Source: Falsiroseomonas algicola (GTDB lineage Bacteria > Pseudomonadota > Alphaproteobacteria > Acetobacterales > Acetobacteraceae). Taken from it: 64,000 nucleotides of DNA. The notes under the pieces were generated by a model that saw nothing but the letters and a program-made list of their open reading frames with translations, ran no database searches and was not told where the DNA came from. Of this stretch, positions 58,782-62,122 are shown in pieces. The DNA lies in assembly GCF_011040385.1 (NCBI RefSeq), contig NZ_JAAIKB010000010.1:1-64000 (forward strand). Reading direction: 5' to 3'. Each line of letters starts with the position of its first letter. Positions within the stretch are counted from its first letter, which is position 1. A program made the translations under genes and the position numbers.

Positions 58782-59510
58782 ATGGACGCCACCGCCCCGC
58801 ACATCCTGATCGTCGATGACGACCGCGAGATCCGCGAGCTTCTGACCAAGTTCCTGGAGAAGCAGTCGCTCCGCGTCACTGCCGCCCGCGATGCGCGGGA
58901 CGCGCGCAAGCTCTGGCCGCTCGGCCGCTACCACCTGGTGGTGCTGGACCTGATGATGCCGGGCGAATCGGGCCTCGACCTCGCGCGCTGGCTGCGCAGC
59001 CAGTCGGAAGTGCCGATCGTGATGCTGACCGCGATGGGGGAGGAGACGGACCGGATCGTGGGCCTGGAGCTCGGCGCCGACGACTACGTCGCCAAGCCCT
59101 TCAACCCGCGCGAATTGCTGGCGCGCATCCGCGCCGTGCTGCGCCGCGCCACGGCCGACAGCAGCACGGGCCCCTCGCAGGAGCCGCCGGCGAAGGTCAT
59201 CCGCTTCTCCGGCTGGCTGCTGGAACCCGCCCGCCGCCGCCTGCTGAACCCGCAGGGGGTGGAGGTGCCGCTGACCGGCGGCGAGTATGAGCTGCTGATG
59301 GTGCTGGTGGAGCGCCCGAACCGCGTGCTGACCCGCGACATGCTGATGGACCTGCTGCGCGGCCGCCAGGCGGGCCCCTTCGACCGCGCGATCGACGTCG
59401 CCGTCTCCCGCCTGCGCCGCAAGCTCGAGGATGACGGCCGCAACCCGCAGGTCATCAAGACCGTGCGCGGCGGAGGGTATGTGCTGGCCTCGACCGTCGA
59501 ACGGGCCTGA
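58782..59510 (+). CDS. OmpR-family response regulator
   Basis: A 242-residue regulator. The receiver domain has acidic pocket residues (IVDDDRE), phospho-acceptor Asp56 (VVLDLMMPGESG) and Lys105 (YVAKPFNP). A winged-helix output domain follows (YELLMVLVERPNRVLTRDML; IDVAVSRLRRKLEDDGRNPQ). It is paired with the kinase just downstream, 2 bases apart. TATGTTACAG just before the start may be a -10 element. The signal is unknown. Confidence 0.93.
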   Translation: MDATAPHILIVDDDREIRELLTKFLEKQSLRVTAARDARDARKLWPLGRYHLVVLDLMMPGESGLDLARWLRSQSEVPIVMLTAMGEETDRIVGLELGADDYVAKPFNPRELLARIRAVLRRATADSSTGPSQEPPAKVIRFSGWLLEPARRRLLNPQGVEVPLTGGEYELLMVLVERPNRVLTRDMLMDLLRGRQAGPFDRAIDVAVSRLRRKLEDDGRNPQVIKTVRGGGYVLASTVERA

Positions 59511-59512
59511 GC

Positions 59513-60859
59513 GTGTTCCGCTGGATGCGCTGGCTGTGGCCCTGCAGCCTGGCCGGGCGCACGGCGCTCGTGCTGCTCTTCGGCCTGGTGCTGGTGCAGG
59601 TTGCGGGGCTGACCATCCATGCGCTGGACCGCGTGGATCTCCAGCGCCTGCAGCAGGGCCGGGAGATCTCCCAGCGCGTCTTCAGCGTCTGGCGCAGCCT
59701 GCTGCAGCTGCAGCCGGACCGCCGCGCCAGCATGCTGGCGGACCTCGAGATGCCGCCGGGCCTGCGCACGACCTATGATGCCGAGCCGCTGGCCCGGCCC
59801 GGCTTCCCGCCCCCGCCCCCGCCGCTGATCCGCCTGTTCCGCCTCGAAGCGGTCATGAATGCGCCGCCGCGCTTCCGGCCGCGGGAGGTCCTGGTCTCCT
59901 TCGATCCGCGCCCGGACCTCCTGACGGTCAGCTTCCGCTTTCCCGACCAGGGATGGCTGAACCTGCGGCTGGAATTCCCGCCGCCCCGCCCCTGGCATTC
60001 CGAGCATTTCCTCTTCGCCTTCGTGATGATGACGCTGGCCGCGGGCTTGCTGACGCTCTGGGCCGTGCGGCGGCTGACGCGGCCGGTGCGATCACTGGCG
60101 GAGGCGGCGAACCGCCTGGGGCGCGACGTGAATGCGCCGCCGCTGCCGGAGGATGGCCCCTCCGAGGTCGCGACCGCGGCCAAGGCCTTCAACACCATGG
60201 CGGAGCGCATCCGCCGCTATGTCGGCGACCGCACCCAGATGCTGGCCGCGATCGGGCATGACCTGAAGACGCCGATCACGCGCCTCAAGCTCCGCGCCGA
60301 ATTCCTCGATGACGACGAGCAGCGCCGGAAGATGCTGGCGGACCTCGACGAGATGGAGGCGATGATCGCCGCCACCCTCGCCTTCGCGCGGGACGAATCG
60401 ACCGGCGAGCCCTCGGTGCCCGTGGACCTCGCCTCCCTCTGCCGCACCGTGCTGGATGAGGCCGCGGATGCGCGGCCCGACTTCACCGACAGCATCACCT
60501 ATGAGGGGCCGGAACACCTGACCGTGACAGCCCGGCCCGGCGCGCTGAAACGCGCGCTGGCCAACCTGGTCGGCAACGCCGTCGCCTATGGCGGCGCCGC
60601 ACGCCTCACCCTGGTCCCGCCCGTGGCAGGCCTGGTCCGGATCACGGTGGAGGACGACGGACCAGGCGTGCCCGATTCGGAACTGGAGAACGTCTTCCAG
60701 CCCTTCCGAAGGCTGGAGAGCAGCCGGAACCGCGAGACGGGCGGGACGGGCCTCGGCCTGCCGATCGCCCGCAACATCCTGCGGGCGCATGGCGGCGACG
60801 TGGTGCTGCGAAACCGCCCCAAGGGCGGCCTCCAGGCGCTGGCGACCCTGCCGGTCTGA
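59513..60859 (+). CDS. EnvZ-like sensor histidine kinase
   Basis: A 448-residue membrane kinase. It has two hydrophobic helices (about 17-35 and 165-185) bracketing a periplasmic domain with a Pro run (FPPPPPPLIR), a HAMP domain (RLTRPVRSLAEAANRLGRDV), phospho-acceptor His249 in AAIGHDLKTPITRLKL, and ATPase boxes (LANLVGNAVAYGG; DDGPGVPDSELENVFQPF; GTGLGLPIARNI). The start is a GTG. It forms an operon with the preceding response regulator. Confidence 0.93.
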   Translation: MFRWMRWLWPCSLAGRTALVLLFGLVLVQVAGLTIHALDRVDLQRLQQGREISQRVFSVWRSLLQLQPDRRASMLADLEMPPGLRTTYDAEPLARPGFPPPPPPLIRLFRLEAVMNAPPRFRPREVLVSFDPRPDLLTVSFRFPDQGWLNLRLEFPPPRPWHSEHFLFAFVMMTLAAGLLTLWAVRRLTRPVRSLAEAANRLGRDVNAPPLPEDGPSEVATAAKAFNTMAERIRRYVGDRTQMLAAIGHDLKTPITRLKLRAEFLDDDEQRRKMLADLDEMEAMIAATLAFARDESTGEPSVPVDLASLCRTVLDEAADARPDFTDSITYEGPEHLTVTARPGALKRALANLVGNAVAYGGAARLTLVPPVAGLVRITVEDDGPGVPDSELENVFQPFRRLESSRNRETGGTGLGLPIARNILRAHGGDVVLRNRPKGGLQALATLPV

Positions 60860-60868
60860 ACCGCCCCG

Positions 60869-61072
60869 TCAGGGCCCGAACAGCATCAACGCGACCTCGC
60901 CCGCCGCCATGCTGGCGGTCAGCCCGATCAGCGACCAGCGCATCGCCTCCCGCCACGCAGGCTCCCGCACTGCTGGCTGCGCCAGGCGCCGGCCGCGCGG
61001 CGGCAGCGGGATGCGGAGATCGGCCGGGACGGCGCCGGCCGAAAGGCGGGGGTCGAGGGCGATGGTGCTCAT
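60869..61072 (-). CDS. Small SOS-box-controlled membrane protein, unknown
   Basis: A 67-residue protein with a hydrophilic first part (LDPRLSAGAVPADLRIPLPP) and one hydrophobic segment at about 46-65 (RWSLIGLTASMAAGEVALML). A perfect LexA box (GTTC-N7-GTTC on this strand) sits 10 bases before its start, so expression is probably damage-inducible. A small membrane protein under LexA control recalls the SidA/DidA type of division inhibitors in Caulobacter, but sequence similarity to these was not established. No ribosome-binding site is evident. Confidence 0.65.
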   Translation of the reverse strand: MSTIALDPRLSAGAVPADLRIPLPPRGRRLAQPAVREPAWREAMRWSLIGLTASMAAGEVALMLFGP

Positions 61073-61082
61073 GCGAGTATGT

Positions 61083-61097
61083 GAACATAAAGGGAAC
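61083..61097 (-). promoter_or_regulatory. LexA-binding SOS box
   Basis: The minus strand reads GTTCCCTTTATGTTC, an exact match to the alphaproteobacterial consensus GTTC-N7-GTTC. It ends 10 bases before the 67-residue gene's start codon. It may be a LexA operator overlapping the promoter of that gene. It lies far (about 265 bases) from the divergent gene at 61361. Nothing else is seen in 61098-61360. Confidence 0.75.
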
Positions 61098-61360
61098 ATG
61101 ACCGCAAGCCCGATGTTGAGGTTCTGTTCTCCAACGCCTCCACGCAAGCCCGGGGTCCCTTCGCCCCCGAACCGGACGCGCCCGCGAAGGCGATCCTCAC
61201 CGAGCCGTGCGAGTCGCGCCGAATCATTCCGGCGGAACCTGCATCGCACCGCCCGCGATGACCGCGTATCGCCACGGCGCCGCCGCCGAGCAGCCATCCT
61301 GCAAAGGTCTTGTCCTGTGGTCGCCGGCACCGGAACATGGCCGGGAGGAAGGAGCGCCGC

Positions 61361-62122
61361 ATGTCCGTATCCGATGGGTCACCCCTGGTCCGCCGCCTGC
61401 TGGTCCTGCGCCTGGCGACCCTGGGCGGGGCAGCCGCCCTGCCGGGCGTGGCGGTGGCGCAGGGCGCCAAGTCAGGCGGCGGCGGCGTCCCGGGCACCGG
61501 GGGCGGCGCGCCGAATCCGGGCAGCAGCGGCAAGGGCGGCGGCACCCCGCCTGCCCGCAGCGGCCTGACCGATAGCGACCCGGGCGACGAGCCCGGCAAT
61601 GGCCGTGGCGGCAGCCGGCCGAATACCGGCACCTCCGACAGCGACCCCAGCGACCCGCCCGGCCAGGGCCGTGGCGGCAGCCGGCCGAATACCGGCACCT
61701 CCGACAGCGACCCCAGCGACCCGCCCGGCCAGGGCCGCGGCGGCAGCCGGCCGAATACCGGGACTACCGACAGTGATCCCAGTGATCCGCCGGGGCGCGG
61801 CCGCGGCGGCAGCCGACCGAATGCCGGCACCTCCGACAGCGACCCCAGCGACCCGCCCGGCCAGGGCCGCGGCGGCAGCCGCCCGGGCACGACCGGCGTC
61901 ACGGACAATGACCCGAGCGACCCGCCGAATGGCGGCCGGGGCGGCAACAGGCCCGGCAGCAAGGGGGCTGGCGGCCCGACCGACACGGACCCCAGCGACC
62001 CGCCCGGCCGCGGCCGTGGCGGCAACCGGCCGCCGCCATCCGGCATTTCCGACAGCGACCCGTCGGACCCGCCGGGACGCGGGCGCGGCACCGCGCGGGA
62101 ACCGCAGCAGAAGCGGACCTGA
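61361..62122 (+). CDS. Exported repeat protein with eight 22-residue units
   Basis: A 253-residue protein with an N-terminal signal-like stretch (SPLVRRLLVLRLATLGGAAA, cut near AVAQG). Residues 68 onward are eight near-identical units of about 22 residues with the core (T/S)DSDPSDPPGQGRGGSRPNTG. They are rich in Asp, Gly, Pro and Arg, unfolded-looking and possibly metal-binding through DSDPSD. The coding repeats are 66 bp long. The start at 61361 is preceded by AAGGAG. No family name is certain. Confidence 0.75.
   Translation: MSVSDGSPLVRRLLVLRLATLGGAAALPGVAVAQGAKSGGGGVPGTGGGAPNPGSSGKGGGTPPARSGLTDSDPGDEPGNGRGGSRPNTGTSDSDPSDPPGQGRGGSRPNTGTSDSDPSDPPGQGRGGSRPNTGTTDSDPSDPPGRGRGGSRPNAGTSDSDPSDPPGQGRGGSRPGTTGVTDNDPSDPPNGGRGGNRPGSKGAGGPTDTDPSDPPGRGRGGNRPPPSGISDSDPSDPPGRGRGTAREPQQKRT

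What the first reader, a model, noticed from the sequence alone, without database searches (positions are those of the whole stretch)
61070..61097. SOS box directly in front of a 67-residue single-pass membrane protein
The minus strand has an exact GTTC-N7-GTTC LexA box ending 10 bases before the start codon of a small membrane protein. In Caulobacter, LexA-controlled small membrane proteins (SidA) stop division after DNA damage. This gene is a candidate for an unrecognised SOS division inhibitor or damage-response peptide in Acetobacteraceae. The lack of a visible ribosome-binding site also raises the possibility of a leaderless message.
Basis: partly seen in the sequence, partly recalled or inferred. 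Interest (0 to 1): 0.7.

Follow-up and report, generated by a model that had tools for sequence, protein, structure and literature searches.

The report
DNA-damage-switched small membrane protein family
A tiny, previously unnamed membrane protein of Acetobacteraceae sits behind a DNA-damage control switch that has been kept in many related genera, which makes it a strong candidate for a brake on cell division while broken DNA is repaired.

Summary
The minus strand carries an exact GTTC-N7-GTTC box (61083-61097) 10 nt before the ATG of a 67-residue ORF (60869-61072) with one C-terminal hydrophobic segment. One such box is what chance gives in 64 kb (0.87 expected), so the proof is conservation. 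All 15 genomes searched in the genus (Falsiroseomonas/Roseomonas) hold the gene, each with an exact box 10-11 nt before the ATG although the spacer varies. Searches by protein alone repeat this in three other genera: 29 of 29 readable loci, 5 of 5, and 12 of 13 plus one single-mismatch box. A profile finds the family in 17 genera of Acetobacteraceae (E<=1e-5) and in 0 of 285 class genomes outside it. The host's lexA, uvrA/ssb, imuA, mmcB and other repair genes carry the same box type. The layout predicts a leaderless mRNA with the box between -35 and -10. The protein looks tail-anchored, with a conserved acidic residue inside the membrane segment. Most likely it is an SOS division inhibitor working like SidA/YneA. 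LexA control is close to certain; the effect on division is inferred. No known family matches.

The parts
60869..61072 (-). 67-aa ORF, small tail-anchored membrane protein (ATG 61072-61070, stop included)
   Evidence: translation; orthologues in 15 of 15 genus genomes; dN well below dS; no Pfam, NCBIfam or PHROG match
61083..61097 (-). LexA (SOS) box GTTCCCTTTATGTTC
   Evidence: exact match; exact in 15 of 15 genus orthologues and in most loci of other genera found by protein alone
61102..61107 (-). putative -35 element TTGCGG
   Evidence: CTTGC upstream of the box is conserved, mean 1.72 bits against 0.36 bits for the 46 nt before it; the assignment as -35 is by eye
61079..61084 (-). putative -10 element TCACAT, 17 nt from the -35 and 6 nt before the ATG, implying a start of transcription at or next to the ATG
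   Evidence: by eye; box-to-ATG distance 10-11 nt in 61 of 61 loci of four genera and 9-10 nt in 9 of g4 (loci chosen within 8-12 nt)
60875..60931 (-). codons 48-66, the hydrophobic helix with conserved Glu59
   Evidence: hydropathy scan; an acidic residue lies in this segment in 31 of 31 aligned relatives; E59 nearly invariant

Best explanation
This is a LexA-repressed, probably leaderless gene for a C-tail-anchored single-pass inner-membrane protein. LexA binds between the -35 and -10 elements and blocks transcription; DNA damage, through RecA, makes LexA cleave itself and frees the promoter; the mRNA starts at or within a few bases of the ATG. The protein lies N-in, with an arginine- and proline-rich cytoplasmic part and a C-terminal helix that carries one buried acidic residue. 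I think it delays division by docking its helix onto the septal wall-synthesis complex (FtsW/FtsI/FtsN), as SidA and YneA do. Shown: the conserved box, reading frame, promoter layout and hydropathy. Inferred: LexA binding, induction, the leaderless start, the topology and above all the division target. My estimate is 0.95 for LexA control and about 0.5-0.55 for division inhibition.
For: Exact box 10-11 nt before the ATG in 15 of 15 genus genomes, with ten different spacers but invariant halves. By protein alone: g102 29 of 29 readable loci, g25 5 of 5, g17 12 of 13. Family-wide pattern: 70 sites against 2 for the reversed control, 61 of 70 before such a small membrane protein. Same box type at lexA, uvrA/ssb, imuA, mmcB, udgX, a radical-SAM repair gene, recF and a DNA-damage helicase of this genome; the Caulobacter LexA consensus is GTTCN7GTTC (PMC12700426, passages). 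Purifying selection. Known SOS division inhibitors outside the SulA group are small single-helix membrane proteins that act on or near FtsW (PMC4211646, passages; PMC13396833, abstract and Discussion).
Against: No experiment on this gene. No detectable homology to a named family. The known inhibitors YneA, ChiZ and SosA have working parts outside the membrane, whereas here 28 of 31 relatives end 0-5 residues after the helix. The profile finds the family in only 96 of 397 Acetobacteraceae genomes at E<=0.01. In g17 the buried Glu is missing. In g16, g45 and some other genomes the box is imperfect.
Confidence: 0.55

Rival explanations
1. An SOS-induced membrane-active peptide in the manner of TisB or DinQ: it lowers the membrane potential and slows metabolism rather than acting on the divisome.
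For: LexA control and a single hydrophobic helix are shared with DinQ (PMC3567139, abstract start in the listing) and with TisB (recalled).
Against: A long, conserved, positively charged cytoplasmic part with an IPxPPR-like motif and one conserved acidic residue point to a protein partner. No known RNA family in 60500-61800; antisense RNAs were not otherwise looked for.
Confidence: 0.2
2. A small membrane connector that tunes a sensor kinase, for instance the convergent EnvZ-like kinase next door, so that DNA damage alters envelope gene expression.
For: The kinase lies beside the gene in 11 of 15 genus loci; small connectors of this sort are known (recalled).
Against: The kinase was found in 0 of 102 loci of other genera examined in the same call, although the flanks held are only about 0.7-1.5 kb.
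Confidence: 0.1
3. Another SOS task at the membrane, for example with the divergent secreted DxDPxD-repeat protein or another envelope partner.
For: The divergent repeat ORF is beside the gene in 13 of 15 loci of g1, 20 of 30 of g102, 2 of 2 of g48 and 3 of 3 of g29.
Against: It is absent from the loci of g25 (0 of 5) and g17 (0 of 13) and from 15 of 20 other loci; nothing shows that the repeat gene is under LexA.
Confidence: 0.13
4. A chance box before a spurious or unrelated ORF.
For: The window alone has about as many boxes as chance gives.
Against: Box and frame are kept together across genera, with dN far below dS.
Confidence: 0.02

Closest known systems
SidA of Caulobacter crescentus
   Same: LexA-controlled small inner-membrane protein of an alphaproteobacterium, same type of LexA box
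   Different: SidA has 29 aa (PMC4211646, passages); the present family has mostly 57-90 aa with a conserved cytoplasmic part; homology not tested, function here not shown
DidA of Caulobacter crescentus
   Same: Similar size (71 aa) and one predicted membrane helix (PMC4211646, passages)
   Different: DidA is SOS-independent and has a periplasmic part; here a LexA box and almost no tail
YneA (Bacillus), ChiZ, SosA
   Same: SOS-induced small single-helix proteins; YneA docks its helix on FtsW (PMC13396833, abstract and Discussion)
   Different: YneA and ChiZ carry a LysM domain and SosA an extended region outside the membrane; the present family has its conserved part on the presumed cytoplasmic side
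TisB and DinQ of Escherichia coli
   Same: LexA-controlled single-helix inner-membrane peptides
   Different: Toxic peptides with antisense RNA control (DinQ: abstract start seen; TisB: recalled); no such RNA is known here

Membership tests
Alphaproteobacterial LexA (SOS) regulon | GTTC-N7-GTTC box at the promoter, conserved in orthologues | tested here: met
Alphaproteobacterial LexA (SOS) regulon | Host has LexA and RecA, and known SOS genes carry the same box | tested here: met
   lexA, uvrA/ssb, imuA, mmcB and others; recA has a one-mismatch box about 190 nt upstream
Alphaproteobacterial LexA (SOS) regulon | LexA binding and induction by DNA damage | not testable with these tools
   needs binding test and RNA data
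SOS-induced small membrane division inhibitors (SidA, YneA, ChiZ, SosA) | Small protein with a single membrane helix under LexA | tested here: met
   hydropathy and box; no structure prediction could be run
SOS-induced small membrane division inhibitors (SidA, YneA, ChiZ, SosA) | Blocks late division through FtsW/FtsI/FtsN | not testable with these tools
   no experiment and no complex modelling on hand
SidA protein family | Sequence homology to SidA | not tested
   the SidA sequence was not fetched; no Pfam, NCBIfam or PHROG family matches
TisB/DinQ-type SOS toxins | Antisense RNA partner | tested here: inconclusive
   no Rfam match in 60500-61800; unknown RNAs not sought

The most novel reading that the evidence does not exclude
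A clade-specific, fast-evolving family of leaderless, LexA-switched, tail-anchored proteins is the main SOS effector on the cell envelope in a large part of the Acetobacteraceae. It would act from the cytoplasmic face through a conserved Ile-Pro-rich motif plus a buried acidic residue, a mode of divisome or envelope control unlike that of YneA, ChiZ or SosA, whose working parts lie outside the membrane.
Probability: 0.4. Interest if true: 0.75.

Novelty: new variant of a known kind. Interest (0 to 1): 0.6.

Why it matters
I found no paper on how Acetobacteraceae stop dividing after DNA damage (searches of an open-licence library). This gives a concrete, testable gene family for that group, with its promoter layout and a predicted key residue. 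It also shows that a genome-wide motif count would mislead: many boxes of this genome sit in a dispersed repeat, and only the pairing of box, spacing and small ORF across genera isolates the real target.

Tried and rejected
Genome-wide enrichment of the box (103 sites against 34 for the reversed pattern) was rejected as proof: of 60 further sites fetched, 27 were judged by eye to belong to a dispersed intergenic repeat. A window-only chance test is uninformative (0.87 expected).

The genus-only profile A1 hit 33 of 397 family genomes at E<=0.01, 13 of them of the genus; only one of the rest (G215, genus g16) looked like a true relative to me. A wider alignment A2 of 31 sequences was then built, mostly from pattern-selected sites, so hits in genera or genomes without a pattern match are the fairer test. 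Of 32 such stretches read, three (L262, L270, L271) were judged not to be members and dropped. Of the other 29, 19 have an exact box nearby: 13 of 13 in g4 (nine of them 9-10 nt before the ATG; in L245, L246, L248 and L261 further away), one in g6 (L256, where the ATG 10 nt after the box is out of frame with the hit and the in-frame one is at 28 nt), three in g45 (16-17 nt) and two in g36 (further upstream, with an imperfect box at 10 nt). Nine have one mismatch, and one (L269) a 6-nt spacer. A single-mismatch box within the 290 nt scanned is expected in roughly one locus in ten by chance (my arithmetic), so these count little, except in g16, where four of four (L158, L242-L244) show ATTC-N7-GTTC 10-11 nt before a likely ATG (read from the sequences printed).

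Neighbouring kinase as partner: not seen outside the genus. In that call the query that I labelled 'Prorich' was cut one base out of frame, so its rows are discarded; one search replaces them. Plasmid copies: no match with two queries. In the genus searches, second weak hits (for example L200, L214) were not counted, and three g102 genomes with a hit (G685, G693, G703) gave no locus and were not examined.

Literature: no paper holds LexA, Acetobacteraceae and 'SOS response' together; for Roseomonas, LexA and 'SOS response' one unrelated paper; one search listed one paper, on Caulobacter; of 2,180 papers found I saw 20 listed, none about a LexA regulon by title.

Structure prediction could not be run: the machine was full at six tries.

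Full report
WHAT IS THERE. On the minus strand of the window the sequence reads CTTGCGG-TCAT-GTTCCCTTTATGTTC-ACATACTCGC-ATG. The box is an exact GTTC-N7-GTTC at 61083-61097, the only one in the window, where shuffles give 0.87 on average. The ORF 60869-61072 encodes 67 aa and has no Pfam match. It lies convergent to an OmpR/EnvZ-like pair (58782-60859) and divergent from a repeat-rich ORF (about 61361-62122).

HOST REGULON. The genome has 103 exact boxes against 34 for the reversed control pattern (the list of places is capped). I fetched 60 further sites and read their surroundings. Two classes stand out. One, 27 sites by eye, belongs to a dispersed intergenic repeat, typically GTTCCnnCTATGTTC, with a tail rich in TAAACGG/TAATCGG in most copies. 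The other lies beside repair genes. Profile scans name LexA (TIGR00498), SSB, UdgX with TIGR03915, a TIGR03916 radical-SAM repair protein and RecF above their curated cut-offs, and UvrA (incomplete in the fetched stretch), ImuA and a ligase-associated DEXH helicase below theirs; MmcB is PF06319. recA has GTTT-N7-GTTC about 190 nt upstream. So this bacterium appears to use the LexA motif known from Caulobacter (GTTCN7GTTC; PMC12700426, passages). Several other sites lie inside or beside unrelated genes and may be chance.

CONSERVATION IN THE GENUS. All 15 of 15 genomes searched hold the protein, and 15 of 15 have an exact box with an ATG 10 (nine) or 11 (six) nt after it (in L068 an extra in-frame ATG lies 2 nt after the box). 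The two halves are invariant while ten different spacers occur; CTTGC upstream is conserved (mean 1.72 bits) against 0.36 bits for the 46 nt before it. Contig lengths tie these genomes to Falsiroseomonas stagni, F. bella, F. tokyonensis, F. selenitidurans, Roseomonas ponticola, R. oleicola and others. Among the four closest, each pair differs by 10-15 synonymous and 2-5 non-synonymous codons; dN 0.014-0.039, dS 0.22-0.34.

OTHER GENERA. The pattern CTTG-N7-GTTC-N7-GTTC-N8..12-ATG gave 70 sites in 66 of 397 family genomes and 2 sites for the reversed pattern (sites recounted). 60 of 70 lead into a 40-110 aa ORF with a C-terminal hydrophobic segment by my hydropathy rule, 61 with L108, a genus orthologue just under the cut. 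That search fixes the spacing in advance, so I repeated the test with protein alone. Genus g102: 33 of 35 genomes hit, 30 loci fetched, 29 readable at the promoter (L182 appears cut by the contig end), 29 with an exact box. g25: 5 of 5. g17: 13 of 17 genomes hit; 12 of 13 primary loci exact, one GTTC-N7-GTGC. In these 61 loci the box lies 10 or 11 nt before the ATG (which looked within 8-12 nt). The 31-row profile A2 then hit 96 of 397 family genomes at E<=0.01; by hand count from the table, 72 genomes in 17 genera at E<=1e-5. Of 29 members read that had no pattern match, 19 have an exact box nearby, 9 one mismatch and 1 a 6-nt spacer (details and dropped rows under Tried and rejected). In the class, the pattern gave 5 sites in 4 of 285 genomes outside the family, none before such a protein (one precedes what I take, from recall, for a UmuD-like protein), and A2 hit 0 of 285 at E<=1e-4 (only the best first-look candidates of each genome are scored). 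The family thus seems confined to Acetobacteraceae, and within it is absent, or too diverged to see, in about three quarters of the genomes searched.

PROTEIN. Across 31 relatives the shared features are an IPxPPR-like motif in the N-terminal part and a C-terminal helix with Glu (Asp once) near its end; P25 is invariant, and I21, P22, L51 and E59 are nearly so. The N-terminal part is net positive in 30 of 31, and the tail has 0-5 residues in 28 of 31 (three of g37 have 20-21). By the positive-inside rule (recalled) this means N-in, C-out and a tail anchor. Genus g17 forms a looser group without the Glu; the profile comparison with A2 gives 83% probability over 29 columns of the helix. Synteny supports common descent: a divergent ORF with DxDPxD repeats lies beside the gene in 13 of 15 genus loci, 20 of 30 of g102, 2 of 2 of g48 and 3 of 3 of g29, but in 0 of 5 of g25, 0 of 13 of g17 and in no other of the 20 further loci examined.

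PROMOTER AND START. TTGCGG, 17 nt, TCACAT, 6 nt, ATG (by eye) would place a normal start point at or next to the A of the ATG, with the box inside the spacer and over the edge of the -10. This explains the rigid distance between box and ATG and the missing Shine-Dalgarno: SD-like 4-mers occur in 3 of 61 upstream stretches, all three in g25, and in 5 of 10 other genes of this genome at the starts I took; random 17-mers give 17.6%. Leaderless translation is inferred.

MECHANISM. [quoted passage not shown] SidA and DidA are proposed to hold FtsW/I/N inactive (PMC4211646, passages). YneA docks its helix on FtsW TM7, and AlphaFold 3 models that the authors call not of high confidence place ChiZ, SosA and SidA on FtsW too (PMC13396833, abstract and Discussion). 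By regulation, size and single helix the present protein fits that kind; the buried acidic residue suits a specific helix contact. That step is inference.

VERDICT. LexA control and a real, conserved gene: near certain. Division inhibition: slightly better than even. It works like the SidA/YneA kind as far as can be seen, but membership by function is untested and by sequence unsupported.

Noticed in passing
same genome, outside the window: L001-L007, L009, L013, L015, L018-L022, L024-L026, L031-L036, L038, L045, L048: A dispersed intergenic repeat, 27 copies picked by eye among 60 fetched sites, carries a LexA-like box (often GTTCCnnCTATGTTC) and, in 20 of 27 by a simple pattern, a tail TGCTAAA... 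with TAAACGG/TAATCGG units. It is not in the window. Whether LexA binds it, so that it titrates the repressor or drives small RNAs, is unknown.
   Followed up: partly
window 61361-62122 (+): Divergent ORF with a signal-like N-terminus and DxDPxD-PPGxGRGG repeats, no Pfam match; kept beside the small gene in several genera.
   Followed up: partly
L132, L133, L134, L181, L182, L184 (genus g102): Some genomes carry two or three copies of the small gene, each with its own box where readable; in L134 and L132 the two copies lie about 4.2 and 4.9 kb apart in repeats of 267 and 284 nt.
   Followed up: partly
L145-L151, L201-L213 (genus g17): The same promoter drives small membrane proteins without the conserved Glu and with a GGW-type helix: divergence, or replacement of the effector behind a kept switch.
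   Followed up: partly
L017 and L023 (same genome): Two near-identical ORFs (starting ...HAPPLISPVVWHAIRTARDA in L023) each follow a GTTCTGTnTTTGTTC box; possibly a mobile element under SOS control.
   Followed up: no
L012 (same genome): GTTCTTGATTCGTTC lies 43 nt before a long ORF with a hydrophobic stretch and no Pfam match.
   Followed up: no
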